Assembly: GCF_947493875.1 (NCBI RefSeq)
Contig: NZ_CANLSU010000002.1
Location: 62,001-126,000, forward strand
Length of the DNA: 64,000 nucleotides
Source of the DNA: an uncultured Marinococcus sp.
Lineage (GTDB): Bacteria; Bacillota; Bacilli; Bacillales; Marinococcaceae
Direction: 5' to 3'
Shown here: positions 43,789 to 57,837 of the stretch, piece by piece
Numbering within the stretch: the stretch's first letter is position 1
Layout: the number at the start of each line of letters is the position of its first letter
Notes under the pieces: generated by a model
What the model was told of the DNA's origin: nothing
The model's database searches: none
The model's input: the letters and a program-made list of their open reading frames with translations, nothing else
Program-made: the position numbers and the translations under genes

Positions 43789-45330
43789 TCAGCGGTCTTT
43801 ATCAGAAACCTGACTGGCATAGGAAACGGCTTCCTTCGAGCGGATGGCCGCTCCTTTTGCTTTTTCCTTAAGCAGCTGATCTTCCTTCGAGAGATAATAG
43901 TCGTCGGCGAAGGAATTCTCCGGTTCTTCGAGTGTAAAGTAGCATATGATAAAGCTTATAAAAGCTCCTCCGGCCAGGATAAAGAAAAACTGACTTGGGG
44001 TGACGAACGTATAGAGCGTTAAATAGACACTTGCACCGATGCTTCCATATGCTCCGGTCATACCGGCCACCTGGCCGGTGACCCGTTTTTTTACCATTGG
44101 AACCATTGCAAAGGTGGCACCTTCGCCTCCCTGCACAAATAACGAAGTAAGAACTGTCATGAGAACAGCCAGTATGACCGGCCAGCCGGAGTTGATCATG
44201 CCCATGCCGCACATGCCAATCACAATACCGAACATATAAACGAGCATTACCTTGCGCCGGCTTCCAAGGCGGTCGGATAGTACACCGCCGAGCGGACGGG
44301 CAAGCAGGTTTACAAAGGCAAATGAAGCTGCAATCAGACCGGCTGTAGACGGCGTAAGAGAGAAGGTGAGCTGGAAAAACATAGGGAGCATGGATACAAT
44401 CGCAAGTTCAGCGCCAAAGTTGGCGAAATAAGTACTGTTCAGAGCCCCGACATTTTTGAAGTTGTATTGATCGTCTTTTGCTATACCTTGTTTAATAATA
44501 GGAACGTTTACTTTTATGATCATGTAGATCTGATAAATCAACACGAGCCCTACAGCGATGAAAATACCGTACACAATAGAAGTGGAAATAAAGCCCATAT
44601 CGAAGACTCTCCAGGCACTAAGAGCCACAGCGCCTCCGACAGGTATAGTCCAAAACATCAGTTGAGCCATATCCTTCCAGGAGCTCACTTCCATGGCGCC
44701 GGAGCGTTTCGGCTTAATAAGCGTATGGCCTTCCGGCGTGTCGCGGACGTTTAAGTAAAAAACAATACCATAAATAAAGCAGACAACCCCGGTGAAAGCA
44801 ACCGCATATCTCCAGCTGTCATCGCCGCCGATAAGAGTGATGGCGAGCCACGGAAGAATGATAGCCCCCGCTGCTGAACCAAAATTGCCCCAGCCGCCGT
44901 AGATTCCTTCAGCAAAGCCCACATGCTTGGGTGGAAACCATTCTGCGATCATGCGGATACCGACAACGAAGCTTGCGCCAATACTTCCGAGTACAAGCCG
45001 GCTGATGGCAAGCTGCGCCCAGGTGCTGCCGAATGCAAAGATAAATGTAGGCACCGCCATAATAATCAATAGTGTGGAAAAGACGACCCGCGGGCCAAAG
45101 CGGTCGAGCAGCGAGCCGATAATGATTCGCGCCGGGATAGTCAGGGCTACGTTCATGATTCCGAGGGCGGCGATATGTTCAGTCGTCAGCCAACCAAGGT
45201 CAGCCATCATGGTGGTCGCAAGCGGAGCCATATTGTACCAGGCGAAAAATGAGATGAAGAACGCAAACCAGCAGAAGTGAAGAATTTTAATGCGTTCATC
45301 CTGAAAGCGAAAAAGGTCTTTAATAGTCAA
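43789..45330 (-). CDS. narK: Nitrate/nitrite MFS transporter
   Basis: Nitrate importer of the nitrate-nitrite-porter branch of the MFS, 513 residues with 12 helices. The family signature YGGWGNFGSAAGAII in TM5 and a related glycine-rich motif (MTGAYGSIGASVY) in TM11 are visible, with conserved arginines in TM2 (IPARIIIG) and TM8 regions. It is longer than B. subtilis NasA, with a charged C-terminal tail. The TTG start is set by AGGAGG. Location in the assimilation cluster argues for uptake. Confidence 0.88.
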   Translation of the reverse strand: MTIKDLFRFQDERIKILHFCWFAFFISFFAWYNMAPLATTMMADLGWLTTEHIAALGIMNVALTIPARIIIGSLLDRFGPRVVFSTLLIIMAVPTFIFAFGSTWAQLAISRLVLGSIGASFVVGIRMIAEWFPPKHVGFAEGIYGGWGNFGSAAGAIILPWLAITLIGGDDSWRYAVAFTGVVCFIYGIVFYLNVRDTPEGHTLIKPKRSGAMEVSSWKDMAQLMFWTIPVGGAVALSAWRVFDMGFISTSIVYGIFIAVGLVLIYQIYMIIKVNVPIIKQGIAKDDQYNFKNVGALNSTYFANFGAELAIVSMLPMFFQLTFSLTPSTAGLIAASFAFVNLLARPLGGVLSDRLGSRRKVMLVYMFGIVIGMCGMGMINSGWPVILAVLMTVLTSLFVQGGEGATFAMVPMVKKRVTGQVAGMTGAYGSIGASVYLTLYTFVTPSQFFFILAGGAFISFIICYFTLEEPENSFADDYYLSKEDQLLKEKAKGAAIRSKEAVSYASQVSDKDR

Positions 45331-45444
45331 AAGGAGAACCTCCTAAGATTAGGTGATTATTTTTGGTTTTTTTCAAAAAACAATTGAAAGTTAACGCGCG
45401 TGTACTTATTTCTCAGGAAGTTCGCCGATGCGGCCGAAGAAGTT

Positions 45445-45771
45445 TTATTTTAAAAGCAAATAAACGGTGTTGTTTTCAATTTTTGTATCATAGGAGATGG
45501 TACAGCCTTCATCCGGCCCCTGGGCCTCTCCATCGTTCAGGCTGATTTTCCAGTCGTGAAGCGGACAGAAGACGTGCTCTCCACTGACAATCCCCTGGGA
45601 AAGGGGGCCTCCTCTGTGAGGGCATTTATTTTCCAGGGCGAAAATGGTGTCGTCTTTGGTCTTGAAAATGGCTATGGAAGTTTCTTCAATGAGCACTTCT
45701 TTAGGAATATCGACCGTAATTTCCTCAACGGTGGCCACTGCTACTTCTTTTTGTTTATCTACGCTATTCAT
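45445..45771 (-). CDS. nirD: Nitrite reductase small subunit, Rieske type (NasE/NirD)
   Basis: A 108-residue Rieske-like subunit of the assimilatory NAD(P)H nitrite reductase. The [2Fe-2S] ligands are in CPHRGGPLSQG and CPLHDW. It starts from GGGAGG and lies 18 bases after nirB. In B. subtilis nomenclature this is nasE. It is needed for electron flow or assembly of the large subunit. Confidence 0.93.
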   Translation of the reverse strand: MNSVDKQKEVAVATVEEITVDIPKEVLIEETSIAIFKTKDDTIFALENKCPHRGGPLSQGIVSGEHVFCPLHDWKISLNDGEAQGPDEGCTISYDTKIENNTVYLLLK

Positions 45772-45789
45772 CTCTGTTCCTCCCTCAAA

Positions 45790-48219
45790 TTAAACGAGCT
45801 CCACTTTACGCTGTTCAAAAAGCTCCTGCTTTTTCTTTTCGTTATACGTAAGTTCCTTCCACGGGTCTTCACCTTTATGCTCGAGGGACACTTCCATGCG
45901 CTCAATTAAGTTTGCCCGTGCCTCTTCATCTTCGAGGACGACTGCTTTTACATGATCAAGGCCGACACGTTCGATCCAGTGAGAGGTGCGCTCGAGGTAG
46001 TGGGCGGACTCCCGGTAATATTGGAGAAAAGCGCTGATAGACTCCAGCAGCTCGTCATCGCTGTTCATTTTTCCGAGCAGGTCGCCGCCCCTGAGGTCCA
46101 CGCCGCCATTTCCGCCGACGTACATTTCCCAGTGACCTTCAAGGCCGACAATTCCAATATCTTTGATGCCGGACTCCGCGCAGTTTCTCGGGCAGGCCGA
46201 AACGGCCATTTTCACCTTGTGGGGAGTGTTGAGCCGTTCGTATTTTCGCTCGATGGTCATACCCATCCCGATGGAATCCTGGGTGCCGAAACGGCAGAAG
46301 TCTTCACCGACGCATGTTTTTACGGTACGTATACTTTTCCCGTAAGCATGGCCGGAAGGCATGTCGAGTTCGCCCCATATGGACGGGAGGTCTTCTTTTT
46401 TGACACCAAGCATGTCAATACGCTGGCCGCCTGTCATTTTAAGCAGCGGCACTTCATACTTTTCTGCGACATCGGCAATTTTCCGGAGCTGCTCTGAATT
46501 AGTGACGCCCCCATACATTCTTGGAACAACGGAGTAGGTGCCGTCGTTTTGAATGTTGGCGTGCACACGTTCATTGATAAAACGGGAGGCGTAGTCGTCC
46601 TCATACTCTTTTGGTTTCGAGACGCTCAAGTAGTAGTTCAGGGCCGGACGGCACTTGGAGCAGCCTTCAGGCTCCTTCCATCCGAGCACGTTCATCACTT
46701 CGCGGGTATGAGTGAGCTGCTTTGTTTTTATTTCTTCAATGACCTGCTCATGGGAGAGGTCGGTACATCCGCACAGCGGCTCCACTTCGGCACCGGCAGC
46801 TTCGTCGCCGAGCGTGGCATTCAGCAGGTCGGAAACGAGCGGTTTACAGCCGCCGCAGGAGCGCGAAGCGTTCGTATGCTGTTTAATCTCGTTGACGGAA
46901 GTCAGTCCTTTGTCATTAATGGCAGAAACGATATCGCCTTTACAGACTCCGTTGCACCCGCAGACCGTTTCTTCGTCCGCCATGTCTGCGACGGGACTCT
47001 CCACCGGTGCATTGCTTTCGGAGGGGAGGATGAGCCCTTTGCCAACGTCGGAGATGTCTTCTTTTTTATTGATCAGATTCAAAAGCTTCGGCGAATCGGA
47101 GGTATCTCCGAATAAAACAGCTCCGACAACCTTGTTATCACGGATGTTCACTTTCTTATAAACGCCGTCAAAATCGTCATGAACAAGCACAGATTTTAAA
47201 TCGTCCGCTTCTCCAAATTCACCTGCTGAAAAGACATCCACCCCTGAAACCTTTAATTTGGTTGAGGTAAGAGAGCCCTGGTAGCCGGTCCCTGCCGGTT
47301 CTTTGGATACGAGCCGCTCAGCCAGAATTTTTCCCTGTTCATATAACGGGGCTACGAGGCCGTAAGCGATCCCGTTATGCTCTGCGCATTCGCCAACGGC
47401 GTATACATCCGGAGCGCTCGTTTCAAGAAAATCGTTCACGACAATCGCGCGGTTTGTCTCCAGACCGGAGTTTTCTGCAAGACTAATATTCGGACGGATG
47501 CCGACAGCGATAACAATGAGATCGGCGTAAAGTGATTCCCCGTCTTTAAAATGAAGGCCCTGCACGCGTTTGCGGCCGAAAATCTGTTCTGTCTGCTTTT
47601 CCATATGGAATCGCATGCCCTGGCTTTCAAGCTCACGCTTTAGCATTTTGGAGGCGTTTGGATCAAGCTGGCGTTCCATTAACTGATCCTGAAGGTGAAT
47701 CACTTCTGTTTCCATATTTAGATTCAGCAGGCCCCGGGCGGCCTCAAGACCCAGCAGTCCGCCGCCAATAACAGCTGCTTTTTCATATTTTTTGGATGCT
47801 TCAATCATTGTTTCGGTATCTTTTATATCCCGGAAGGAAATTACTCCTTCTTTGTCAGAGCCGGGGATAGGGGGCATAAAAGGGTTGGATCCGGTAGCGA
47901 CGATCAGATGGTCATACGTACATACTATCCCCTCGGCACTTTCCACCTGTTTGTTGTTCGTATCAATGTGCGTGACTTCATCGCCTGCATAAAGCGTAAT
48001 ATTATGTTCTTCATACCAGTCATAATCATTTAAAACGATGTCTTCTAATTCGCTGTCTCCCTGAAGAACAGAGGAGAGCAGAATGCGGTTGTAGTTTGGG
48101 TATGGCTCTTTGCCGAAAACTGTAATTTCAAAGCGCTCCGGCTCCTGCTTTAAAATTTCTTCAATAGTATACATGCCGGCCATGCCATTGCCGATCAGTA
48201 CGAGACGTTCTTTACTCAT
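45790..48219 (-). CDS. nirB: Assimilatory nitrite reductase large subunit (NasD/NirB)
   Basis: An 809-residue enzyme that reduces nitrite to ammonium with NAD(P)H. Order: FAD/NAD reductase domain (IGNGMAGMYTIEE; VIGGGLLGLEAARG), two BFD [2Fe-2S] motifs (CGCNGVC...CGGC; CGCTD...CSKC), and the siroheme/[4Fe-4S] half with ligands Cys636, Cys642, Cys676 and Cys680 (CVGEDFC and CPRNC). All cofactor ligands are kept, unlike the related NasB. It forms an operon with nasF upstream and nirD downstream. Confidence 0.95.
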   Translation of the reverse strand: MSKERLVLIGNGMAGMYTIEEILKQEPERFEITVFGKEPYPNYNRILLSSVLQGDSELEDIVLNDYDWYEEHNITLYAGDEVTHIDTNNKQVESAEGIVCTYDHLIVATGSNPFMPPIPGSDKEGVISFRDIKDTETMIEASKKYEKAAVIGGGLLGLEAARGLLNLNMETEVIHLQDQLMERQLDPNASKMLKRELESQGMRFHMEKQTEQIFGRKRVQGLHFKDGESLYADLIVIAVGIRPNISLAENSGLETNRAIVVNDFLETSAPDVYAVGECAEHNGIAYGLVAPLYEQGKILAERLVSKEPAGTGYQGSLTSTKLKVSGVDVFSAGEFGEADDLKSVLVHDDFDGVYKKVNIRDNKVVGAVLFGDTSDSPKLLNLINKKEDISDVGKGLILPSESNAPVESPVADMADEETVCGCNGVCKGDIVSAINDKGLTSVNEIKQHTNASRSCGGCKPLVSDLLNATLGDEAAGAEVEPLCGCTDLSHEQVIEEIKTKQLTHTREVMNVLGWKEPEGCSKCRPALNYYLSVSKPKEYEDDYASRFINERVHANIQNDGTYSVVPRMYGGVTNSEQLRKIADVAEKYEVPLLKMTGGQRIDMLGVKKEDLPSIWGELDMPSGHAYGKSIRTVKTCVGEDFCRFGTQDSIGMGMTIERKYERLNTPHKVKMAVSACPRNCAESGIKDIGIVGLEGHWEMYVGGNGGVDLRGGDLLGKMNSDDELLESISAFLQYYRESAHYLERTSHWIERVGLDHVKAVVLEDEEARANLIERMEVSLEHKGEDPWKELTYNEKKKQELFEQRKVELV

Positions 48220-48269
48220 AGATGAATCCTCCTCAAATAATTTAAATAATTCTGATATTTTTCGTCGGT

Positions 48270-49445
48270 TTAAATGCCGGCTGGTGTTTTCACAGGAAAC
48301 GAAGTAAGGCTGTTTAACTGTTCCGTCATTTTTTCAGGCGGCAATGAAGGATCTATATAAAAAACATCTGCTTCATTTGAAGGGAAAGCCTCCTTATCAA
48401 AAATAATGTACACCGGAGAAATGGTTGTACGCTGTTCACTTATCATCCGGTCGATGCCCGGCTTCAGCCTCTGATAGGAAACATAATCTGGAACAAAAAC
48501 GGTATCGATGAGTTTTTCGTCAAGAAGCCGGGAAAGAGCGTGTTCGGTGTTTGGTGAAAGGTGTCCGGTATCAACCGGCTGATTCGTATGGCAAATGGCC
48601 GCCTGCTCGTTCTGCAGATAATCTGTAAAATTCTGAAGCTCTGGGTGTCCGGCGGTGAAGGCTGCAATACTCCGCCTCGTTTTTCTCTCAGGGTCGAACC
48701 ACTGTGTTCTGGTGTGCATCTCTGTAACAGCACCGACTACAATAATTGCGGGATTTGCAATCTGTTCTTTGTGAACTGTTTCTTTAAGGCTGGCGAGCGA
48801 AGCGGCGGTTGACTGCTGTCTGCCATAGGTGCCCCACTGCACAATAAGCACCGGTTCCCCGGGCGAACGTCCGTGCTGGATCAGCTGTTCCGCGATCCAG
48901 CCGGCATGTTTGACCCCCATATAAAAAACGATCGTATCAGAACCAGCAGCAAGACCGCCCCATTGAATGTCGGGCATTCCGTCCTGCTGTTTGCCGTGCC
49001 CGGTCACTACGGTATAGGAACGGGAATAGTCCCGATGGGTTAAAGGGACACCTGCATAAGCTGGAGCGGCGCTTCCGGAAGTGACGCCCGGAATGATTTC
49101 AAAGCGGATCTGATGCTTTTGAAGCTCTTCGGCTTCTTCTCCGACTCTTCCAAAGACTCCCGGGTCCCCTCCTTTCAAACGGACGACCCGGCTGCCGCGT
49201 CTGGCGTGAACCCGAAGCTCATGGTGAATGTCCTGCTGCCGGAGTGTATGCTGGCACGGCTGCTTGCCGCAATAGATAAGTTTCGCATCGGGAGAAGCCT
49301 GCAGCAGGAGCCCGGGATGGGCCAGACGATCATAAATGACCACATCTGCCTGTTGTAATTTACGCAGGCCCTTAGATGTGATTAATTCAGGATCACCCGG
49401 CCCGGCGCCTACAAATGAAACGATTCCAGTATGATTGCTGCCCAT
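48270..49445 (-). CDS. nasF: Uroporphyrinogen-III C-methyltransferase (NasF) with C-terminal extension
   Basis: SAM-dependent enzyme making precorrin-2 for siroheme, the cofactor of NirB. Residues 1 to about 245 form the SUMT domain (VGAGPGDPELIT, VVRLKGGDPGVFGR, PGVTSGSAAPAYAGVPLTHR). The last 140 or so residues resemble a shortened HemD-like tail; B. subtilis NasF has a longer one. It is the first gene of nasF-nirB-nirD and lies 51 bases before nirB. AAAGAGGTG precedes the ATG. Confidence 0.9.
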   Translation of the reverse strand: MGSNHTGIVSFVGAGPGDPELITSKGLRKLQQADVVIYDRLAHPGLLLQASPDAKLIYCGKQPCQHTLRQQDIHHELRVHARRGSRVVRLKGGDPGVFGRVGEEAEELQKHQIRFEIIPGVTSGSAAPAYAGVPLTHRDYSRSYTVVTGHGKQQDGMPDIQWGGLAAGSDTIVFYMGVKHAGWIAEQLIQHGRSPGEPVLIVQWGTYGRQQSTAASLASLKETVHKEQIANPAIIVVGAVTEMHTRTQWFDPERKTRRSIAAFTAGHPELQNFTDYLQNEQAAICHTNQPVDTGHLSPNTEHALSRLLDEKLIDTVFVPDYVSYQRLKPGIDRMISEQRTTISPVYIIFDKEAFPSNEADVFYIDPSLPPEKMTEQLNSLTSFPVKTPAGI

Positions 49446-50074: not shown

Positions 50075-51064
50075 ATGACCGACGCTAAAGATAAAGTTAC
50101 GTACGGATTGATGGCCGCCGGCAGTCTTATTGGCGGTGCACTTCCTCTAATAACTAAAGGGACGAAAAATAAACTTCAATCTTCGGAAGAATCTTCCGGG
50201 GAAGAAAATACTGATGAAACAGCTGAGAACCAGGAAGCAGGAAAAAAAGCTCCCCGGCTCAAACAGACAGCAAAGAAGCCTGCGATTAAAGTAAAGCAGG
50301 CGTCAGACAACGTAAAAGAATCAGAAAAGCAAATGCAGGGGAACCTGAAAAACAAGAAGAAAAGCGCTGAAGATAACGTAAAAAAAGCGGGTGCCCAGGC
50401 TAAAGATACCGTTACAGGGAAAGCTAAAGGAGCCGGGCAGGCAGCTGAAGCAAGTAAAGTTGTTTATAAAGGAAACGAAAAGGTAAAAGAAACTAAAAGC
50501 AGGATAAACGGAATTAAGAATACTGTTGGCGAAAAAGTAGAAAAAACCGGCATGAAAATACAGAATCAAAAAAATGCCCACAGCAGTGTTAATAAAGCTG
50601 AAGAAGAAGCAGAGCAGCCAGCCCGGGAAACGAAGAGCAACGCTCCGAAAAAGGCAAAAAAGGTGTCTAAAAAGACCGCACGCCGTCTTATAGACGCAAC
50701 AGGTCTTGAACAGAGCGCGGCTTCAGCAGAGCCGGGGGTGGAAAACGCGGAAGAGTCCACGTTAACGCAGGAATTTGAGCGCCGCCCGGAAGCAGAAGCT
50801 GCTGCCTATCAATCCGGCAGACAGAACGGAAGTAACATGAACCACAGCCTGAACGATGTAATGGATACCGTGAACGATTTCTTTGAGAGCTATGTAGCCG
50901 AGCCCCAGCGGATTACTTCCACAGAAAAGCAGGAGGGCCAATGGCTTGTAGAAATAGAAGCATTAAATAAAGAAGGAAGAAAATCAAAGAAAGAAACGTA
51001 TCAGGTGCAGGTGGATGATCATTTAGAGGTAGCCTCCTATAAGCGGGTAGACGGAAATAAATAA
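50075..51064 (+). CDS. Gas-vesicle cluster protein: Lys-rich LEA-like region fused to a GvpO domain
   Basis: A 329-residue protein. A short glycine-rich hydrophobic stretch (YGLMAAGSLIGGALPLI) comes first; residues about 30-250 are Lys/Ala/Glu-rich and low in complexity, resembling LEA-type amphipathic or disordered sequence; residues about 258-329 match the GvpO family (DVMDTVNDFFES then RITSTEKQEGQW and a strand-rich end). The two later GvpO-domain genes share this C-terminal pattern. It is in the place of gvpP of Priestia megaterium, but equivalence is not certain. AGAAAGGTGAG precedes the ATG. The role is unknown. Confidence 0.75.
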   Translation: MTDAKDKVTYGLMAAGSLIGGALPLITKGTKNKLQSSEESSGEENTDETAENQEAGKKAPRLKQTAKKPAIKVKQASDNVKESEKQMQGNLKNKKKSAEDNVKKAGAQAKDTVTGKAKGAGQAAEASKVVYKGNEKVKETKSRINGIKNTVGEKVEKTGMKIQNQKNAHSSVNKAEEEAEQPARETKSNAPKKAKKVSKKTARRLIDATGLEQSAASAEPGVENAEESTLTQEFERRPEAEAAAYQSGRQNGSNMNHSLNDVMDTVNDFFESYVAEPQRITSTEKQEGQWLVEIEALNKEGRKSKKETYQVQVDDHLEVASYKRVDGNK

Positions 51065-51089: not shown

Positions 51090-52064
51090 ATGGCAAAAAA
51101 GATTTTACTAACTGAAGGCGGAAAATATGTCGATGGTTCAGAGCCAAAGGTAAGAAAGACGTTCTCCGTGCCGGACGAAGCCTGGAAGAAAACTCACTTT
51201 TCTTCATATTCCAAAGCAGAATCATCTGATGACAATTTATCCAGAAAGCAATCAACTGAGGAAGAAAAGAATGCCCAGGATAAAGAATCGTTTTTGGATA
51301 AGGTGAAAGACAGCGGTCAAAAAGCAGCCAAATGGGTTTCATTAAAAAAAACGAAGAAATATTTTGATGAAAAAACAGAGAATACGGTTATTGAGCCGGT
51401 TAAAGAGACCGCAGAAGAAATTTCTGACTTGAACCCTGTGGAAACAACGAAAAATATGATTCAGGGAAACGCCAAAGAAGAACTCGCAAAAACCGCTGCA
51501 AAGGGAATAAAAAATAATCCTCAGGCTGCCAACGCTGTAGCTGCTGCCTATATGGGGAAAAAGTTTTTTAACACTCTGGAAAGCGCCCGTTTGGCAAAGG
51601 AACATGCCCAGGAGAAAGTACAGGAAACAAAGCAGGCTTTGGAAGGAAAGGGAGAAGAAGCCCAGGAAAAACTGCAGAAAGCTGTTGAACAGGCTAAAGA
51701 AAAAGGCCAGGAAGCCCAGGGAAAACTGGGTGAAGCTACAGGGCAGCTGCAGGAAAACATTCAGGGAGGCTCCAATAAGTCCGGGAAAGGGGGCGGTAAA
51801 ATCCTTCGGTCGCTGCCCGAAAAAGGTTTGAGCGATCTAAAAGGAATGGAAGATATCAAGGGACCGTCGAACATCAAAAGTTACAGCGAGTCCAGGTTAA
51901 GAAGCTATGACGAGGTCAAGGGCGTTGATGATATTAAAGGCATAAGCGAACTGAAAGGCTTATCTGACATCAAGAGCTACAAGGAATCGAAGCTGAAAAG
52001 CTACGATGATATCAAAGGTATCAACGCCATTAAAGGAACAGAAAATATTAAGCATTATGATTAA
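51090..52064 (+). CDS. Gas-vesicle cluster repeat protein (LEA-like middle, GxxDIK hexapeptide C terminus)
   Basis: A 324-residue hydrophilic protein with no membrane helix. The middle (about 165-230) has 11-residue-like amphipathic repeats rich in Glu, Lys, Gln and Ala (AQEKVQETKQ, EEAQEKLQKAVEQAKEKGQE). The last 83 residues are built of tandem six-residue units of the form G-x-x-D/N/E-I/L-K (GLSDLK, GMEDIK, GVDDIK, GISELK, GLSDIK, GINAIK, GTENIK), interrupted twice by a longer IKSYxESxLxSYD unit, a 32-residue higher period. It ends 13 bases before gvpA. It sits where P. megaterium has gvpQ. Shell-binding or clustering is possible but unproven. Confidence 0.72.
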   Translation: MAKKILLTEGGKYVDGSEPKVRKTFSVPDEAWKKTHFSSYSKAESSDDNLSRKQSTEEEKNAQDKESFLDKVKDSGQKAAKWVSLKKTKKYFDEKTENTVIEPVKETAEEISDLNPVETTKNMIQGNAKEELAKTAAKGIKNNPQAANAVAAAYMGKKFFNTLESARLAKEHAQEKVQETKQALEGKGEEAQEKLQKAVEQAKEKGQEAQGKLGEATGQLQENIQGGSNKSGKGGGKILRSLPEKGLSDLKGMEDIKGPSNIKSYSESRLRSYDEVKGVDDIKGISELKGLSDIKSYKESKLKSYDDIKGINAIKGTENIKHYD

Positions 52065-52077
52065 GGAGTGAAAGATT

Positions 52078-52347
52078 ATGGCAACAATTGAAAAAAGTAC
52101 AGATTCTTCCAGCTTGGCAGAGGTTATTGACCGTATACTAGATAAAGGTATTGTTATCGACCTGTACGCTCGTATTTCTGTTGTAGGAATTGAACTGATT
52201 ACAATTGAAGCACGTATCGTTATTGCAAGTGTTGATACTTGGCTCCGTTACGCTGAAGCAGTCGGACTGCTCCGCGACGATGTCCAGGGCGAAATCGATG
52301 AAGATGCAGACTCTAATGAGCGTGCCGGGCAGTTAAACTTTGCTTAA
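52078..52347 (+). CDS. gvpA: Gas vesicle major structural protein GvpA
   Basis: The 89-residue shell subunit that assembles into the ribs of the gas-filled cylinder. The conserved amphiphilic core is present: [20 protein letters not shown], then [20 protein letters not shown] and [13 protein letters not shown]. It is the only typical gvpA in the window. GGAGTGA lies upstream of the ATG. A strong intercistronic hairpin right after the stop probably raises its mRNA level over the downstream accessory genes. Confidence 0.96.
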
Positions 52348-52356
52348 ATTTCTCTA

Positions 52357-52388
52357 ATCCCGTCATGCGTATGACTGCATGGCGGGAT
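52357..52388 (+). terminator. Hairpin after gvpA (partial terminator or 3' stabiliser)
   Basis: A 12-bp stem with one mismatch (52357-52368 with 52377-52388) and only a weak T-rich tail. This fits partial termination that leaves gvpA in excess. Confidence 0.7.
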
Positions 52389-52422: not shown

Positions 52423-52689
52423 ATGAAAGAAGTCATGGAATCACTGAACGATTTTTTTGAAGAAAATTTAAAGCCTCCGTTTCGCATTACTTCGGTTTCG
52501 GAAGAAGAGTACGGCTGGTTTGCAGAAGTGGAAGTAATCGAAGAAGATGAGTATATGCAAAAGTACGGACATGATCAGCTTCTGGGCGTTTATGAAGTGA
52601 AGCTGAACAACAATCAGCAGGTAGGATCGTTTGAACGTGTTAACCTTAGACCGAGAAGTGCCCACGTTGAAACGGCAGAGAGGAGATAG
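52423..52689 (+). CDS. GvpO-family gas vesicle protein, short form
   Basis: An 88-residue protein consisting almost only of a GvpO domain: ESLNDFFEENLKPPFRITSV, then GWFAEVEVIEEDEYMQKYG and the DQLLGVYEVKLN and FERVNLRPRS end. It is in the position of gvpR of P. megaterium. GvpO proteins are required for gas vesicle formation in haloarchaea, with an uncertain role in assembly or regulation. It shares the YMQKYGxDQLxGxYE segment with the next gene, showing a tandem duplication. Confidence 0.85.
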   Translation: MKEVMESLNDFFEENLKPPFRITSVSEEEYGWFAEVEVIEEDEYMQKYGHDQLLGVYEVKLNNNQQVGSFERVNLRPRSAHVETAERR

Positions 52690-52695
52690 GTACTG

Positions 52696-53133
52696 ATGGC
52701 GGCCAAACAATCTACGGCAAAAACAGAAGAAAAAACAGAAGAGAGTCAGGGGCAGGAGTCGAAAGAACAAATTAAACGCCCGGCCAAATCAGACTCTTCA
52801 AACACGTCTTCACAAAAGTCCTCCGGGCAAAATGAAAAAGCGGACGACAAAGCGTCGTTTGCACCTATTGAAAGTGATATGTTCGAAACCATCCGTTCGT
52901 TTTTCGAAGAAACGATGAACTCACCTGTACGCGTTACAGCTATTATGGATGCCGGAGACAGCTGGAAAATTGAAGTAGAACTAGTAGAAGAGAAGGAATA
53001 CACGCAAAAATACGGAAGAGACCAGTTGATTGGGATTTATGAAGCTACGATGAACAAGGATCAAAAAATAACTTCCTATCAAAGGATGAACACTCGCCCG
53101 AGAAGTACTCCTTTTGAGAAAAAAGAGAGGTAA
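52696..53133 (+). CDS. GvpO-family gas vesicle protein with charged N-terminal tail
   Basis: A 145-residue protein: residues 1 to about 58 are a low-complexity Glu/Lys/Ser/Gln tail, and the rest is a GvpO domain (IRSFFEETMNSPVRVTAIM, EVELVEEKEYTQKYGRDQLI, MNTRPRS). It begins six bases after the previous gene with AGAGGAGAT upstream. It is the third GvpO domain in the operon. Tail-like extensions also occur on GvpN and on the protein at 50075, suggesting a common disordered tether in this cluster. Confidence 0.83.
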   Translation: MAAKQSTAKTEEKTEESQGQESKEQIKRPAKSDSSNTSSQKSSGQNEKADDKASFAPIESDMFETIRSFFEETMNSPVRVTAIMDAGDSWKIEVELVEEKEYTQKYGRDQLIGIYEATMNKDQKITSYQRMNTRPRSTPFEKKER

Positions 53134-53139
53134 AAAAAT

Positions 53140-54216
53140 ATGGCTACTACTAACGAAAGAAAGCAGCAGACTCAGAAAAAGTCATCCAACACATCAGGGA
53201 GCTCCCGGACAAACCAGCAAAAAAACAGCTCTCAGAACAACAGAGGACAGTCAAAAAAGATCAATACACCTGCTAACACGAAATCAAAACAAACGACCTC
53301 TGAAGACCAGCAGCAGTCCAAGCAGCAAAAGATCAGCACTATTAATAAAATCGTAGAGACTGATGAGATGCAGTCGATTCTGGAGCGTTCCGAGAAGTAT
53401 TTAACCTCCGGGTACCCTGTACACTTTACAGGCGCAGCCGGAGTAGGCAAAACTACCCTTTCCTTTCAGCTTGCACGCCGGTTTAACCAGCCTGTTACGC
53501 TGTTAAACGGGAATGAAAGCCTTTCGAACACGGATCTTCTCGGCGGAAGAATCGGCTATACTAGTGACAAATTAATTGATAATTACGTCCGGAAGGTATA
53601 TAAGCGCGAAGACCATATTACGGAACGGTGGAGCACCGGTCGTCTGCTCGAAGCGGTAAAAAATGGCCATACGCTTATTTACGATGAATTCACCCGTTCG
53701 CTGCCGTCTACAAATAATTTGTTTCTTTCCGTTCTTGAAGAGGGCATACTGCCGCTTTACGGCACACAGCGAAATGAAAGCTTTATTACCGTACACCCGA
53801 ATTTTAAAGCAATTTTCACAAGCAATCCGGAAGAATATGCCGGTGTGCATAAATCCCAGGACGCCCTTCTTGATAGAATGATTACAATTCCGGTGGAGGA
53901 CCCTAATAAGGAAGCCCAGGTTTCTATCCTGACTGAAAGAGCTTCCATTAGTGAAAAAGAAGCCGAAACCGTTATTAAAGCACTGGACTGGGCGAAATCT
54001 ACGAGCAGGGAAAATGATACGCATGTGCCAAGCTTCCGTCTCGCTGTTATGACTGCGATGTTAAGCTCGGAGCATGATGTTAAAATAGATGTAAAAAACG
54101 ACGATTTTCAACAGCTGTTTTTTGATGTGATGGGACATTATTTCCTGGAAAATATTCAGGGAGAAGATGTCAGCGAAGCACAAAAAAGAATGAAGGAAGA
54201 GTTGAAAAAGGTCTAG
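53140..54216 (+). CDS. gvpN: Gas vesicle AAA+ ATPase GvpN
   Basis: A 358-residue MoxR/NorQ-type AAA+ ATPase that helps enlarge or complete gas vesicles. Residues 1 to about 65 are a Ser/Gln/Lys-rich low-complexity tail absent from short GvpN proteins. Walker A is GAAGVGKTT at about residue 97-105, Walker B is LIYDEFTRS, and sensor 1 is AIFTSNPEEYAG. AGAGGTAA precedes the ATG, six bases after the previous stop. It acts in the cytosol on nascent vesicles. Confidence 0.95.
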   Translation: MATTNERKQQTQKKSSNTSGSSRTNQQKNSSQNNRGQSKKINTPANTKSKQTTSEDQQQSKQQKISTINKIVETDEMQSILERSEKYLTSGYPVHFTGAAGVGKTTLSFQLARRFNQPVTLLNGNESLSNTDLLGGRIGYTSDKLIDNYVRKVYKREDHITERWSTGRLLEAVKNGHTLIYDEFTRSLPSTNNLFLSVLEEGILPLYGTQRNESFITVHPNFKAIFTSNPEEYAGVHKSQDALLDRMITIPVEDPNKEAQVSILTERASISEKEAETVIKALDWAKSTSRENDTHVPSFRLAVMTAMLSSEHDVKIDVKNDDFQQLFFDVMGHYFLENIQGEDVSEAQKRMKEELKKV

Positions 54217-54229
54217 GAGGCAAGTAACC

Positions 54230-54979
54230 GTGGGAATTTATATGTTTGGGGTTATTGAAACTACTGAAAAGCCAACCTTCGGCAGCGTGGAACTTGAGGG
54301 CAAAGAACGAAAAATCTATACCCTCCAGCGCGGACAGGAGGCGATGGTGGTAGCGGAAGCTCCGATGCAGATTTATGATCCAACGAGGAAAAACCTGCGG
54401 GCTCATCAAGATACAGTGGCCAGAGTAATGGAAGAATACGATGTCATTCCGATGAGTTTTGGGAACGTCCTTGAGGACCAAAAAGAAGTCTTTGCTTTAA
54501 TGGAAAAGCTGAAGGATCAATTTGACGAAATTTTTCCGAAGATCCGCGGCAAAATGGAAGTGGGGCTTAAAATCATCGGAAAAAAAGAATGGCTGAATGA
54601 ACAAATCCGTCAGGAGCCGGGGATGGAAGACCTGCGCAAAAAAACGGATACGAAAGGTAAAAACGCCAGCTATTACGAGCGGATGCAGCTCGGGGAATCG
54701 GCTCAGAAATTCATGATAAGGCTGCACGAGCGCTTTGAAGAAGAAGTCTTCCAGCCGCTCGCACAGATTGCCAACGCAGCTAAAAGCAACGAAGTGATCA
54801 ACGAGCGGATGCTGTTGAATGCCGCTTTTCTAATAGATAAAGAAAATGAAGAAGATTTTGATGCAAAAGTAAACGAGATCTTTAATGAATGGAACGAACA
54901 CGCTGATTTCAAGTATACGGGTCCGTGGCCGGCATACAACTTTATTGACCTGAAAATAAAAGCGGGGAACAGCGTATGA
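54230..54979 (+). CDS. gvpF: Gas vesicle protein GvpF
   Basis: A 249-residue GvpF/GvpL-family protein; GvpF is thought to bind GvpA and act in early assembly or chaperoning. Typical segments are the YMFGVIE start, VIPMSFGNV, a long helical middle (KSNEVINERMLLNAAFLIDKE) and the C-terminal FKYTGPWPAYNFIDLKI. The GTG start follows TAGGAGG. Its end overlaps gvpG by four bases (ATGA). Confidence 0.94.
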   Translation: MGIYMFGVIETTEKPTFGSVELEGKERKIYTLQRGQEAMVVAEAPMQIYDPTRKNLRAHQDTVARVMEEYDVIPMSFGNVLEDQKEVFALMEKLKDQFDEIFPKIRGKMEVGLKIIGKKEWLNEQIRQEPGMEDLRKKTDTKGKNASYYERMQLGESAQKFMIRLHERFEEEVFQPLAQIANAAKSNEVINERMLLNAAFLIDKENEEDFDAKVNEIFNEWNEHADFKYTGPWPAYNFIDLKIKAGNSV

Positions 54980-55233
54980 TTCATAAATTATTTACCTGGC
55001 CGCTTGATACGGTCGTCTGGGCGGGTAAAAAAGTAAAGGAAGAGGCGGATAAAGAATATTTTGATGTCCGCCAGATTCAAAAAAAACTCGCCAATCTGCA
55101 GATCATGTATGAAATGGAAGAGATTTCTGAAGAGGCCTTCACTGAGCAGGAGGAAGAGCTGCTGCAGCGGTATCGCAGAGCGAAGCAGATTGAACAGGAA
55201 GAATTACGGGAAGAGTTAGAGGAAAAGGATTAA
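54976..55233 (+). CDS. gvpG: Gas vesicle protein GvpG
   Basis: An 85-residue, highly charged helical protein starting with the conserved FTWPLDTVVWAGKKVKEEAD segment, followed by a coiled-coil part (QIQKKLANLQIMYEMEEISEEAF). GvpG is one of the essential minor proteins between GvpF and GvpL. The ATG overlaps the gvpF stop, so translation is coupled. Confidence 0.92.
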   Translation: MIHKLFTWPLDTVVWAGKKVKEEADKEYFDVRQIQKKLANLQIMYEMEEISEEAFTEQEEELLQRYRRAKQIEQEELREELEEKD

Positions 55234-55248
55234 AGGAGTGAACCGGCA

Positions 55249-56109
55249 GTGCAGACAAATTCGGGCGCACCGGCTCTTTTGTATTTGTATGCCTTGATCC
55301 CCACGAGTGAATATGAGGAAGCTCCTATGGAGCCGATGGAAGGCATGGAGCCGGACAATAATATCAGCTTTATCGAACATGGCAGTATCACTGCAGTAGT
55401 TACTCATGTTCCAGAGGAAGAATTTTCCCAGGAAAAACTGCAGAAGAATGTAGAAAAAATGGAATGGCTGCAGGCTAAAGCCTTTCACCATCATGAAACG
55501 ATGAACCAGCTGCATGATCGCTATACCACGATTCCGTTAAAATTCGGCACGATTTTTGAACAGGAAGCAAACCTTGCGGAAATGATTGAAAAGTACCACG
55601 AGAGTGTAACGGCCCAGCTTTCTTATTTGAAGGGCAAAGAAGAATGGAACGTCAAAACTTACGCTGATCAGCAGTTGTTCACTGAAGCCGTCGTCCAGAA
55701 CAGCGAAGAAATTCAGGCGAAAGAGGCAGAGCTTGAAGCGATGCCGGCTGGCCGGCGCTTTTTTGAAAAAAAGAAAATGGATCAGTTTATTGAAGCGCAG
55801 GCAGACGAGCAGATTGAGAGGCACTGTCAATCGTTTCATGATGAGTTAACTGCCTGGAGTGAAGGCACGGAAATAAAAAAGAATTGGGAGAAACGCGTCA
55901 CAGACCGGGAAAAAGAAATGGCATGGAACGCAGTATACCTGATTCACTCGAAAGACCGGGAAGCGTTTATTCAATTAATTGAACAGCGCCAGGAAAAAGA
56001 AGAAGCAGAAGAGACCGGGATGGAGTTAGAGTGTACAGGCCCGTGGCCGGCATTTCATTTTTCAGGCCTGACAGACAGGAGGGAGCAAAATGCCCCAGGA
56101 CACTCTTAA
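55249..56109 (+). CDS. gvpL: Gas vesicle protein GvpL
   Basis: A 286-residue GvpF/GvpL-family paralogue. Features: LLYLYALIPTSEY start, TTIPLKFGTIF, an extended glutamate/lysine-rich helical middle, and the same C-terminal TGPWPAFHFSGL motif as GvpF. GvpL interacts with many accessory Gvp proteins in haloarchaea. GTG start with AAAGGAGTGA. Its last 20 bases overlap gvpS. Confidence 0.93.
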   Translation: MQTNSGAPALLYLYALIPTSEYEEAPMEPMEGMEPDNNISFIEHGSITAVVTHVPEEEFSQEKLQKNVEKMEWLQAKAFHHHETMNQLHDRYTTIPLKFGTIFEQEANLAEMIEKYHESVTAQLSYLKGKEEWNVKTYADQQLFTEAVVQNSEEIQAKEAELEAMPAGRRFFEKKKMDQFIEAQADEQIERHCQSFHDELTAWSEGTEIKKNWEKRVTDREKEMAWNAVYLIHSKDREAFIQLIEQRQEKEEAEETGMELECTGPWPAFHFSGLTDRREQNAPGHS

Positions 56110-56323
56110 AAACCGGGAAGTTTCCCTGCTCGACGTCTTGGACTCCGTGCTGGATAAAGGGGTCGTGCTTCAGGGTGATTTAACGATATCCATTGCTGGG
56201 ATTGACCTTGTTTATTTGGATTTACGCGTACTAATCGCTTCTGTAGAAACCCTGCGACAGTCGGAATTGAAGACGCAGAAAGAGTTTGTTTCTAATTCTT
56301 CAGAAACTTCCCAAGTCGAATAA
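56090..56323 (+). CDS. gvpS: Gas vesicle protein GvpS (GvpA/J-like)
   Basis: A 77-residue GvpA-like protein: SLLDVLDSVLDKGVVLQGDL, TISIAGIDLVYLDLRVLIAS, VETL. GvpS is a minor component specific to Bacillus-type clusters and probably a nucleation or tip factor. It overlaps gvpL and uses an AGGAGG site within it. Confidence 0.9.
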   Translation: MPQDTLKNREVSLLDVLDSVLDKGVVLQGDLTISIAGIDLVYLDLRVLIASVETLRQSELKTQKEFVSNSSETSQVE

Positions 56324-56339
56324 AGGAGACTGAAAACAG

Positions 56340-56645
56340 ATGGAAAATAATAACCCGCAAGTAACAGAAGCCCAGCAGCCGACCGGGCGCATATCACTGG
56401 ATCCGGACAAAGCAGAAGAAGGACTCACACAGCTGGTGATGACGGTGGTGGAGCTGCTGCGTGAGCTGGTGGAACGCCAGGCGATGCGAAGAGTCGAAGG
56501 CGGCGATTTAACAGAGGAACAAGTCGAGCAGCTTGGTGTAGCGCTCATGCAGCTGGAAGACAAGATGGAAGAAATGAAGGAAATCTTTGGCCTTACGACA
56601 GAAGATTTGAACATTGACCTTGGACCTTTAGGGAACTTGCTGTAA
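56340..56645 (+). CDS. gvpK: Gas vesicle protein GvpK
   Basis: A 101-residue protein of the GvpK family, with the typical GLTQLVMTVVELLRELVERQ stretch and the AMRRVEGGDLTEEQVEQLG motif. It is an essential minor assembly protein. AAAGGAGA precedes the ATG, 16 bases after gvpS. Confidence 0.93.
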   Translation: MENNNPQVTEAQQPTGRISLDPDKAEEGLTQLVMTVVELLRELVERQAMRRVEGGDLTEEQVEQLGVALMQLEDKMEEMKEIFGLTTEDLNIDLGPLGNLL

Positions 56646-56679
56646 GCTTCAAAATAGGCTTGAAAGAAGGGAATATATT

Positions 56680-57045
56680 ATGGCTGAACAACCTGTACAG
56701 CGCTCAGCACCTGATCACCTGGAGAGACCGTCCGGCGGTCTTGTTGATATTCTGGAAACAGTACTGGATAAAGGTGTCGTTATTGCAGGGGACATTAAAG
56801 TAAATATTGCAGACGTGGAACTGCTGACTATCAAAATCCGTCTGGTCGTTGCCTCGGTGGATAAAGCAAAAGAAATGGGCATCGACTGGTGGGAAACAGA
56901 CCCGCATTATTCTTCCAATGCTAAAAGGCTTGAAGAAGAAAATCAGCGTCTGCTTGAGCGCGTAGAGCAGCTCGAAGATAACCAGCAGGCGGAAAGCGAA
57001 GAGCAGCAGGCGGACACACAGAATAAAAACAAAGCCGAAAAGTGA
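56680..57045 (+). CDS. gvpJ: Gas vesicle protein GvpJ
   Basis: A 121-residue GvpA-like protein with GLVDILETVLDKGVVIAGDI, KVNIADVELLTIKIRLVVAS and the GvpJ-type extension WWETDP, followed by a glutamine/glutamate-rich coiled tail. GvpJ is thought to form the conical caps. It starts from AAGAAGGGA, 34 bases after gvpK. Confidence 0.92.
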   Translation: MAEQPVQRSAPDHLERPSGGLVDILETVLDKGVVIAGDIKVNIADVELLTIKIRLVVASVDKAKEMGIDWWETDPHYSSNAKRLEEENQRLLERVEQLEDNQQAESEEQQADTQNKNKAEK

Positions 57046-57056
57046 GGTGAACGCAC

Positions 57057-57284
57057 GTGATTTTCCGTGATTTGTCTAAAGACATTGGCCAACTGGTACG
57101 GGATCTGCAGAACCAGGACAAGTCGCAGGTTCAACGCACCGAAGAGCGCACGTTTGGAAAAGACGAAAACGCACCGAAGCTTCGGATGGAATATAACATG
57201 AAAGCACGAACGCTTCCGTCGAAGGAAGAAATGGAAGAATACCGAAAAGAAATCAAGCAGCGGGACAGGGATCGTCTGGAATAA
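57057..57284 (+). CDS. 75-residue charged protein of unknown function in the gas-vesicle operon
   Basis: A small hydrophilic protein starting at GTG 57057 with GAGGTGAAC upstream, 11 bases after gvpJ. The N-terminal half is helical (FRDLSKDIGQLVRDLQNQDK); the C-terminal part is rich in Glu, Lys and Arg and probably a charged helix. It occupies the gvpT position of the Priestia megaterium cluster, but I recognise no family. Tight spacing says it belongs to the operon. Confidence 0.65.
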   Translation: MIFRDLSKDIGQLVRDLQNQDKSQVQRTEERTFGKDENAPKLRMEYNMKARTLPSKEEMEEYRKEIKQRDRDRLE

Positions 57285-57381: not shown

Positions 57382-57837
57382 ATGGCAAAAGATAAAAAGC
57401 GGCGGAGATTTTTAAAGAAGAAAAATATTGACGAATCCACGTTGAAGGATCGGTTAAGCCGCCTGAATCCACGGGCGAAGAAATACGCGAAAGACCCAAA
57501 AGAAACAGAAAAACTGCTGCAGCAGGCGAGAGAGAAAGCGGATGATAACCAGAGTCCGCTGAAAAATGTATGGCAGGAGCTGCAGCTGATGCTCGAGATG
57601 CTTCGTGCCTGGTGGAAAAAAGATTATCAGCATGCGCCCTACAAATCGATTGTAGCCATCATTGCGGGACTGATTTATTTCGTTTCCCCGATCGATTTGA
57701 TTCCGGACTTTCTTCCGGGCGGCTTGATTGATGATGCAGCGGTTATTTCATTTGTTTTCAAGCAGGTGCATAAAGACCTCGATGACTTTAAAGAATGGAA
57801 GCTCCAGCGTGACAATACGATTGACGCAGATGAATAG
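57382..57837 (+). CDS. DUF1232 (YkvA-type) membrane protein at the end of the gas-vesicle cluster
   Basis: A 151-residue protein. A basic N terminus (KKRRRFLKKKN) leads to a helical part and the DUF1232 core VAIIAGLIYFVSPIDLIPDF followed by LPGGLIDDAAVISFVF, which gives one or two membrane segments. AAAGGAG lies upstream. It is 97 bases after the previous gene, with an imperfect hairpin between (57307-57342), so it may be co-transcribed or independent. It sits in the gvpU position, but DUF1232 proteins are common outside gas-vesicle clusters. Confidence 0.8.
   Translation: MAKDKKRRRFLKKKNIDESTLKDRLSRLNPRAKKYAKDPKETEKLLQQAREKADDNQSPLKNVWQELQLMLEMLRAWWKKDYQHAPYKSIVAIIAGLIYFVSPIDLIPDFLPGGLIDDAAVISFVFKQVHKDLDDFKEWKLQRDNTIDADE

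What the first reader, a model, noticed from the sequence alone, without database searches (positions are those of the whole stretch)
51090..52064. Gas-vesicle operon protein with GxxDIK hexapeptide tandem repeats and an LEA-like middle
The last 83 residues are a regular array of six-residue units (GLSDLK, GMEDIK, GVDDIK, GISELK, GLSDIK, GINAIK, GTENIK) with a 32-residue higher period marked by IKSYxESxLxSYD. The middle carries 11-residue-type amphipathic repeats as in LEA proteins. The gene ends 13 bases before gvpA. Bacillus-type clusters lack the repeat protein GvpC that stiffens vesicles in cyanobacteria and haloarchaea. A repeat protein next to gvpA could be an analogous outer scaffold, or a tether that bundles vesicles or protects them in salt.
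Basis: partly seen in the sequence, partly recalled or inferred. Interest (0 to 1): 0.75.

Follow-up and report, generated by a model that had tools for sequence, protein, structure and literature searches.

The report
Gas-vesicle protein GvpQ with hexapeptide tail
A gene just before the main gas-vesicle shell gene of a salt-tolerant Bacillus relative encodes a long form of a little-studied gas-vesicle protein (GvpQ) whose six-residue repeat tail turns up almost only beside gas-vesicle genes, which points to a role on or around the vesicle shell.

Summary
The observation mostly holds. Window 51090-52064 encodes 324 aa ending in a hexad array ([GS]xx[DN][IV]K; lag-6 z 6.5, lag-32 z 9.6), 13 nt before gvpA. 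The middle is one amphipathic helix; 11-residue identity repeats are not significant. It is not an orphan but a long, divergent GvpQ (NCBIfam NF041670, E 5e-14, below the curated cut-off) in a Marinococcus gas-vesicle operon. The tail marks the family: 97 of 397 genomes of the order match it, all 97 carry gas-vesicle genes, 0 of 284 genomes without them match. Two lines tie GvpQ to the GvpA shell: a hairpin follows gvpA in 16 of 21 loci and is rare after most other gvp genes, leaving Q-A as a leading unit; and all 48 distinct GvpA C-termini read from GvpQ-bearing loci carry a 16-36-residue extension, against 7-12 in five without GvpQ, while two genomes of another genus, also without GvpQ, have a GvpA with a long LEA-like tail. 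Best guess: a dispensable shell-surface protein docking through many weak hexad contacts. Scaffold, bundler and GvpA holdase cannot be told apart here. It does not match GvpC.

The parts
51090..52064 (+). gvpQ homologue, 324 aa
   Evidence: NCBIfam GvpQ E 5.1e-14, 52.6 bits, under cut-off 100; directly upstream of gvpA; matches in 19 of 199 genomes, the own genome counted; 3 named Marinococcus species
51519..51767 (+). amphipathic helix, residues 144-226
   Evidence: hydrophobic period 3.6; AF2 helix 144-226, block pLDDT 40-68; dN/dS 0.035 for 156-226
51825..52061 (+). hexad tail, residues 246-324, 12 units, two of them of eight residues
   Evidence: unit count from L041, whose tail is identical; dN/dS 0.059; AF2 of the tail alone pLDDT 46, no stable fold
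50075..51064 (+). GvpP by position, 329 aa
   Evidence: relatives in L026, L027, L041-L043; no hit to the GvpT/GvpP model and no profile match to the B. megaterium-like GvpP, so the name rests on position
50096..50152 (+). hydrophobic Gly/Ala-rich segment of this GvpP, similar to the N-terminus of GvpQ in five other loci
   Evidence: hhalign probability 92, E 7e-7 on small alignments; 0 of 200 local column shuffles reach the score
50849..51052 (+). GvpR/GvpO-like domain at the C-terminus of this GvpP
   Evidence: BLASTP to gvpR1 E 9e-13 and to gvpR2 E 2e-7
52078..52347 (+). gvpA (shell protein), 89 aa
   Evidence: PF00741 E 7.7e-15; NCBIfam GvpA
52273..52344 (+). C-terminal extension of GvpA, 24 residues, net charge -6
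52357..52388 (+). hairpin with T-rich tail directly after gvpA
   Evidence: 13 bp stem, -21.0 kcal/mol; position kept in relatives, sequence not
52423..52689 (+). gvpR1 (GvpO family)
   Evidence: PF05800 E 3.1e-6
52696..53133 (+). gvpR2 (GvpO family)
   Evidence: PF05800 E 4.8e-6
53140..57045 (+). gvpN, F, G, L, S, K, J
   Evidence: order and synteny; S and J match PF00741; N, F, G, L, K named from order and recall, not scanned against families here
57057..57284 (+). small protein labelled T in my scripts; not recognised as GvpT
   Evidence: no GvpT hit; no GvpT/GvpP-model hit in the window in the whole-genome search
57382..57837 (+). DUF1232 protein, labelled U in my scripts; not GvpU
   Evidence: PF06803 E 3.5e-12; no GvpU in the whole genome at E 0.01

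Best explanation
The gene encodes a long, divergent GvpQ. GvpQ is most likely a non-essential protein of the vesicle surface, made together with the shell protein GvpA. Its C-terminal hexads act as many weak, interchangeable binding sites that dock on the regularly repeated C-terminal extension of GvpA. Its amphipathic helix then forms an outer layer that coats, spaces, bundles or tethers vesicles; in some species a hydrophobic N-terminal segment is added. Shown here: homology, tail specificity, the hairpin that sets Q-A apart, matching changes in GvpA C-termini, purifying selection. Inferred: location on the vesicle, outward position of the GvpA extension, direct contact of hexads with it, and the mechanical or spatial outcome.
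For: Tail profile hits 97 of 397 genomes, all with gas-vesicle genes, none of 284 without (13 of the 97 supplied rows of the profile, so 84 did not). In 33 pairs that I took from the cut printed lists the tail ends 64-241 nt before the GvpA motif; 30 of 30 fetched loci hold a gvpA 1-124 nt away. Hairpin of -14 kcal/mol or better after gvpA in 16 of 21 loci (four of them Marinococcus); in the control run 11 of 18 gvpA ends against 0 of 16 Q, 0 of 16 R1, 0 of 13 N, 0 of 16 F, 2 of 16 G, 1 of 15 L, 0 of 15 S, 0 of 15 K, 2 of 15 J ends. All 48 distinct GvpA C-termini read from Q-bearing loci begin RD and run 16-36 residues after GLL; five from loci without Q run 7-12; Q-less loci form two groups on the tree. 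L089 and L090, with no GvpQ found, have a GvpA with a tail of about 185-210 residues in 11-residue repeats (z 11.1, 10.8). Q and the GvpA extension occur without any GvpU in the genome at E 0.01 in G000, G004, G011, G052 and G757, so the extension cannot be there for GvpU alone. dN/dS 0.059 in the tail against 0.229 in the linker.
Against: GvpAPQ are described as redundant for vesicle formation in E. coli (PMC11223475). The hexad tail is neutral in the window (net 0) although the GvpA extension is acidic (-6), so simple charge pairing is not the rule. Q-less and Q-bearing clusters may be separate cluster lineages; only two groups support the correlation. A hairpin also follows 3 of 7 T-labelled ends and 1 of 1 DUF1232 end, as expected for operon ends, and is missing or weak after gvpA in 5 of 21 loci. 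No structure was predicted with confidence. The B. megaterium vesicle structure was solved on the operon without gvpQ, so nothing direct is known.
Confidence: 0.4

Rival explanations
1. Soluble holdase: GvpQ is a flexible, LEA-like helper made just before GvpA that keeps the hydrophobic GvpA subunits soluble until they join the shell; the hexads bind free GvpA, not the vesicle.
For: Gene order Q then A on a leading unit; helix and low-confidence tail; weak amphipathic-helix profile hits of other GvpQs (apolipoprotein, phasin, all below cut-off). The full B. megaterium cluster is not in the list of those giving detectable vesicles in E. coli while the version without gvpA-Q is (PMC10344784 passages), as if A-P-Q can hold the process back.
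Against: Vesicles form without GvpQ; the E. coli result is confounded by the extra gvpA and by expression; GvpA with a LEA-like tail in cis (L089, L090) would carry its helper into the shell.
Confidence: 0.25
2. Spatial organiser: GvpQ with GvpP (and GvpT/GvpU where present) clusters vesicles or tethers them to the membrane, as reported for GvpU and GvpT in B. megaterium.
For: In G017, G154 and G179 genes for GvpU and GvpT/GvpP-family proteins lie just before gvpQ. A hydrophobic segment like that of the window's GvpP stands at the N-terminus of GvpQ in five loci. The window's genome has no GvpU at E 0.01 and no GvpT/GvpP-model hit in the operon, leaving room for GvpP/GvpQ. Clustering by GvpU/GvpT through the GvpA C-terminus is reported (PMC10903477, PMC11445434).
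Against: Q occurs together with GvpU and GvpT in some genomes (G107, G195), so it would be partly redundant there; one group could not confirm the GvpU effect (PMC11223475); segment hydropathy is only 1.2-1.8, and L030 has the segment in Q plus separate GvpT/GvpP-family genes, so it is no simple replacement of GvpP.
Confidence: 0.2
3. Dose or switch regulator of vesicle production with no structural role.
For: Full cluster with A-P-Q not among those with detectable vesicles in E. coli; the authors mention possible cis-regulators among cluster genes.
Against: No regulatory or DNA-binding family hit; unit number varies from 4 to 14 in 36 of 41 distinct proteins, unusual for a switch.
Confidence: 0.1

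Closest known systems
GvpQ (NCBIfam NF041670; short form in the B. megaterium-like cluster of G107/L056, 155 aa, 168.5 bits)
   Same: gene directly before gvpA/B; helical body; hexads up to the C-terminus
   Different: the window protein is twice as long, has a conserved N-terminal 41 residues, 12 tail units instead of 6-7, and scores 52.6 bits against a cut-off of 100
GvpC of cyanobacteria and haloarchaea
   Same: non-essential repeat protein encoded beside gvpA; proposed outer position by analogy; GvpC repeats of 32-38 residues (PMC10903477)
   Different: no PF01304 match; hexads, not 33-residue helical repeats; tail has no Phe and two Arg, so no Arg/Leu/Phe binding pattern
GvpT and GvpU clustering proteins of B. 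megaterium
   Same: gas-vesicle accessory proteins of Bacillota, dispensable, thought to act through the GvpA C-terminus; in three genomes encoded just before gvpQ
   Different: GvpQ sequences do not match their models
LEA group 3, apolipoprotein and phasin type amphipathic helices
   Same: long charged amphipathic helix without Cys
   Different: no family hit above cut-off; no significant 11-residue identity repeat

Membership tests
GvpQ | significant similarity to the GvpQ profile | tested here: met
   E 5.1e-14, residues 134-266 against positions 6-134 of 137, three stretches
GvpQ | score over NCBI's curated equivalog cut-off (100 bits) | tested here: not met
   52.6 bits; hence filed as divergent homologue, not as curated equivalog
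GvpQ | gene directly upstream of gvpA/gvpB | tested here: met
   18 of 18 Q-bearing stretches (15 other genomes, 3 Marinococcus; the 19th stretch, L025, is the partial second cluster without Q). A GvpP matching the window's was found in only 5 of the 18
GvpQ | C-terminal hexads | tested here: met
   present in the B. megaterium-like GvpQ of L056
GvpC | match to the PF01304 33-residue repeat | tested here: not met
   no hit in hmmscan of Pfam at E 0.1
GvpC | periodic Arg/Leu/Phe face that binds GvpA helix 2 | tested here: not met
   tail has 0 Phe and 2 Arg by reading; feature described in PMC10903477
GvpC | found on vesicles and strengthens them | not testable with these tools
   needs purified vesicles
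LEA group 3 | 11-residue repeats | tested here: not met
   lag 11 not significant (z 2.1), while the GvpA tails of L089 and L090 give z 11.1 and 10.8 as a contrast
hexapeptide beta-helix | strict six-residue rungs predicted as a fold | tested here: inconclusive
   208 of 215 steps are six residues but units of 7-8 occur, and AF2 gives no strands at pLDDT 46

The most novel reading that the evidence does not exclude
GvpQ is the Bacillales answer to GvpC, invented separately: an outer coat protein that clicks onto the extended C-terminus of every GvpA through an array of hexapeptide docking motifs, with another genus of the family having welded a helical coat onto GvpA itself.
Probability: 0.25. 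Interest if true: 0.8.

Novelty: new variant of a known kind. Interest (0 to 1): 0.5.

Why it matters
GvpQ has a name but no stated function in the passages I could find, and the B. megaterium operon widely used for engineered vesicles leaves it out. A short, modular motif that tracks the shell protein's C-terminus gives a direct test of whether Bacillales vesicles have an outer coat and, if binding is shown, a small tag for decorating B. megaterium-type vesicles.

Tried and rejected
Rejected: GvpC membership (no PF01304 match). A PF01304 search of 80 of the 113 gas-vesicle genomes rang in none, but no control genome rang either, so genome-wide absence is not shown. Rejected: LEA membership of the middle. 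Rejected as leading idea: rigid hexapeptide solenoid (7- and 8-residue units; no fold). An 18-residue super-period seen by eye in L032 and L033 was not tested; Marinococcus has 32. PDB sequence search: tail profile one chance hit, E 0.84, whole protein none; plasmids searched with the L056 GvpQ, none. The models were too weak for fold searches, so none was run. Phylum sample: 3 of 249 genomes hit the tail profile, one the window's own, two spurious (G201, with three stops and on another contig than its gvp genes; G368, no gvp gene, E 0.0015); 8 of 249 have gas-vesicle genes, the own genome included. A GvpQ-profile search of 398 phylum genomes gave 11 genomes: the own, one over the cut-off (G107), and nine at E 5e-5 to 1e-3 that were not followed.

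Corrected on checking: which looked only downstream of gvpJ, I first took L039 for a locus without GvpU. The whole-genome search shows GvpU just before gvpQ in G154 (L039), G179 and G017. Of 14 genomes searched, 5 have no GvpU at all at E 0.01 and 3 more (G021, G025, G145) only weaker matches on other contigs than their gvp genes. GvpT/GvpP-model matches over the cut-off occur in 5 of 14; weak matches occur in all 14 and in 4 control genomes, so they say little. L030 (G017) does have such genes next to Q, so I no longer say that GvpQ with the hydrophobic segment replaces GvpP.

Limits: the order tally rests on one profile at E 0.01; one secondary hit (G728 C2, E 0.009) lies on another contig than that genome's gvp genes. 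Of the 16 gas-vesicle genomes without a tail hit, 14 were read and 2 (G065, G114) not: 5 (L093, L096, L099, L101, L102) have a diverged GvpQ before gvpA, 9 none found by phmmer at E 0.01 (in L094 only J and K were found). GvpA C-termini were picked by a motif pattern, so a GvpA outside it would be missed; L116 (outside the order) was printed but left out of the length count, and L108-L115 gave none. In one search the rows of L025, L041, L043 and weak matches were dropped and the window was not included. The tree uses GvpF, L, K, G of 33 loci, midpoint rooted. In one search the parser found 4 or more units in 36 of 41 distinct proteins; for L031 it took a wrong ORF, L027, L093, L096, L099 are irregular, L101 and L102 were not picked up. 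The P and Q segment alignments have 4 and 5 rows, L029 and L040 being close relatives; the same test of Q segments, or of the window-type GvpP, against the short and B. megaterium-like GvpP gave no match.

Full report
What is there. The ORF at 51090-52064 codes for 324 residues and ends 13 nt before gvpA. Its last 79 residues are a hexad array; 10 hexads fit [GS]xx[DENAS][ILVM]K where shuffles give 0.28 on average and 3 at most, with strong identity at lag 6 and lag 32. The central part is a single amphipathic helix by hydrophobic period (3.6) and by AlphaFold2 (residues 144-226), everything at low confidence (mean pLDDT 42). An 11-residue repeat is not supported by identity. Across four Marinococcus sequences the tail and the helix are under strong purifying selection (dN/dS 0.059 and 0.035) while the linker 42-100 is loose (0.229) (species).

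What it is. NCBIfam names the core GvpQ at E 5e-14, under its cut-off of 100 bits. The operon reads P-Q-A-R-R-N-F-G-L-S-K-J plus two small ORFs (some names by order only), close to gvpAPQBRNFGLSKJTU of B. megaterium (order quoted in PMC9501494). The last two ORFs are not GvpT and GvpU by model; the last is a DUF1232 protein, and the whole genome has no GvpU at E 0.01. In a B. megaterium-like genome (G107, L056) the order A-P-Q-A is seen (P by model) and its 155-aa GvpQ (168.5 bits) also ends in hexads. So the finding is a long version of a known protein, and the tail is a feature of the family. I found no text on this tail or on a function of GvpQ: 'GvpQ' occurs in 2 papers with 'gas vesicle' in the held library, both naming the gene only in the passages seen; one search added no statement on it. 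The library lacks most subscription papers, the original 1998 description among them.

How specific is the tail. In the own genome the tail has no second copy (next hit E 0.12). With an in-register profile of 30 positions, 97 of 397 genomes of the order match; 113 of the same 397 have gas-vesicle proteins; all 97 are among the 113 and none among the other 284. Thirteen of the 97 supplied rows of that profile. In 33 pairs taken from the printed lists, which are cut, the tail ends 64-241 nt before the GvpA motif, and all 30 loci fetched by the search contain gvpA next to the tail. Of the 16 gas-vesicle genomes without a hit I read 14: five carry a diverged GvpQ, nine none that I could find. In a sample of 249 phylum genomes, seven genomes besides the own have gas-vesicle genes and none has the tail beside them. 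Over 41 distinct proteins (249 six-residue units) the unit is [GS]-x-x-[DN]-[IV]-K: K at position 6 in 95%, I or V at position 5 in 88%, D or N at position 4 in 60%; 208 of 215 steps are exactly six residues, and arrays reach 14 units.

Link to the shell. First, transcription: a stable hairpin with a T-rich tail lies right after gvpA at 52357-52388. At -14 kcal/mol or better it is found after gvpA in 16 of 21 loci with differing sequence. In the control run it follows 11 of 18 gvpA ends, but 0 of 16 Q, 0 of 16 R1, 0 of 1 R2, 0 of 3 P, 0 of 13 N, 0 of 16 F, 2 of 16 G, 1 of 15 L, 0 of 15 S, 0 of 15 K and 2 of 15 J ends; it also follows 3 of 7 T-labelled and 1 of 1 DUF1232 ends, the operon ends. 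Q-A thus forms a leading unit that can be made in larger amounts than the assembly factors; that it is so made is inference. Second, GvpA: all 48 distinct C-termini read from Q-bearing loci continue RD... for 16-36 residues after GLL, while five from loci without GvpQ have 7-12, mostly acidic; two loci of another genus of the same family lack GvpQ and have a GvpA with a tail of about 185-210 residues in 11-residue repeats. A tree of four other Gvp proteins puts the Q-less loci in two groups, so the coupling rests on two events. GvpU and GvpT are said to act on the elongated GvpA C-terminus (PMC10903477 passage); yet five of 14 genomes searched (G000, G004, G011, G052, G757) have Q and, in their loci, the extension, but no GvpU at E 0.01. 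In G017, G154 and G179 genes for GvpU and GvpT/GvpP-family proteins stand just before gvpQ, which links Q to the clustering proteins by neighbourhood. Third, shared segments: a hydrophobic segment like that of the window's GvpP stands at the N-terminus of GvpQ in five loci (hhalign E 7e-7; 0 of 200 shuffles), though it does not match the B. megaterium-like GvpP, and one of these loci also has separate GvpT/GvpP-family genes. In Marinococcus this GvpP also ends in a GvpR-like domain.

Mechanism. My preferred reading is a surface protein that docks by many weak hexad contacts on the GvpA array and uses its helix to coat, space or tether vesicles (0.4). A holdase for GvpA (0.25) and a spatial organiser (0.2) remain close rivals. 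The one functional hint is that the full B. megaterium cluster is not in the list of those giving detectable vesicles in E. coli, whereas the version without gvpA-Q is (PMC10344784 passages); this shows an effect of the A-P-Q stretch at most and is confounded by gvpA and expression. GvpAPQ are called redundant for formation (PMC11223475).

Verdict.

Noticed in passing
L089 6145-6912; L090 4517-5494: GvpA with a C-terminal tail of about 185-210 residues made of 11-residue LEA-like repeats, in two genomes of one genus of the same family; no GvpQ found there.
   Followed up: partly
L025 3413-5461 (own genome, contig C15): A second, partial gas-vesicle cluster with L, S, K, J and the small T-labelled ORF, no gvpA; a resolvase-like gene lies about 1.2 kb away (by reading).
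   Followed up: no
window 50849-51052: The GvpP of Marinococcus ends in a GvpR/GvpO-like domain, so the operon holds three such domains.
   Followed up: partly
L030, L035, L039 (G017, G179, G154): GvpT/GvpP-family and GvpU genes stand before gvpQ and not at the operon end, a rearranged order.
   Followed up: no
L028, L029, L030, L031, L040: GvpQ N-terminus carries a hydrophobic segment like that of the window's GvpP.
   Followed up: partly
L036, L038, L039, L089, L090: No gvpN found by the window query although the rest of the cluster is present; GvpN is called necessary for elongation in B. megaterium.
   Followed up: no
window 43789-49445, minus strand: Nitrate transporter-like, nitrite reductase-like and uroporphyrinogen methyltransferase-like genes lie next to the operon (by reading, names recalled).
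   Followed up: no
window 57382-57837: DUF1232 protein at the operon end where B. megaterium has GvpU.
   Followed up: no
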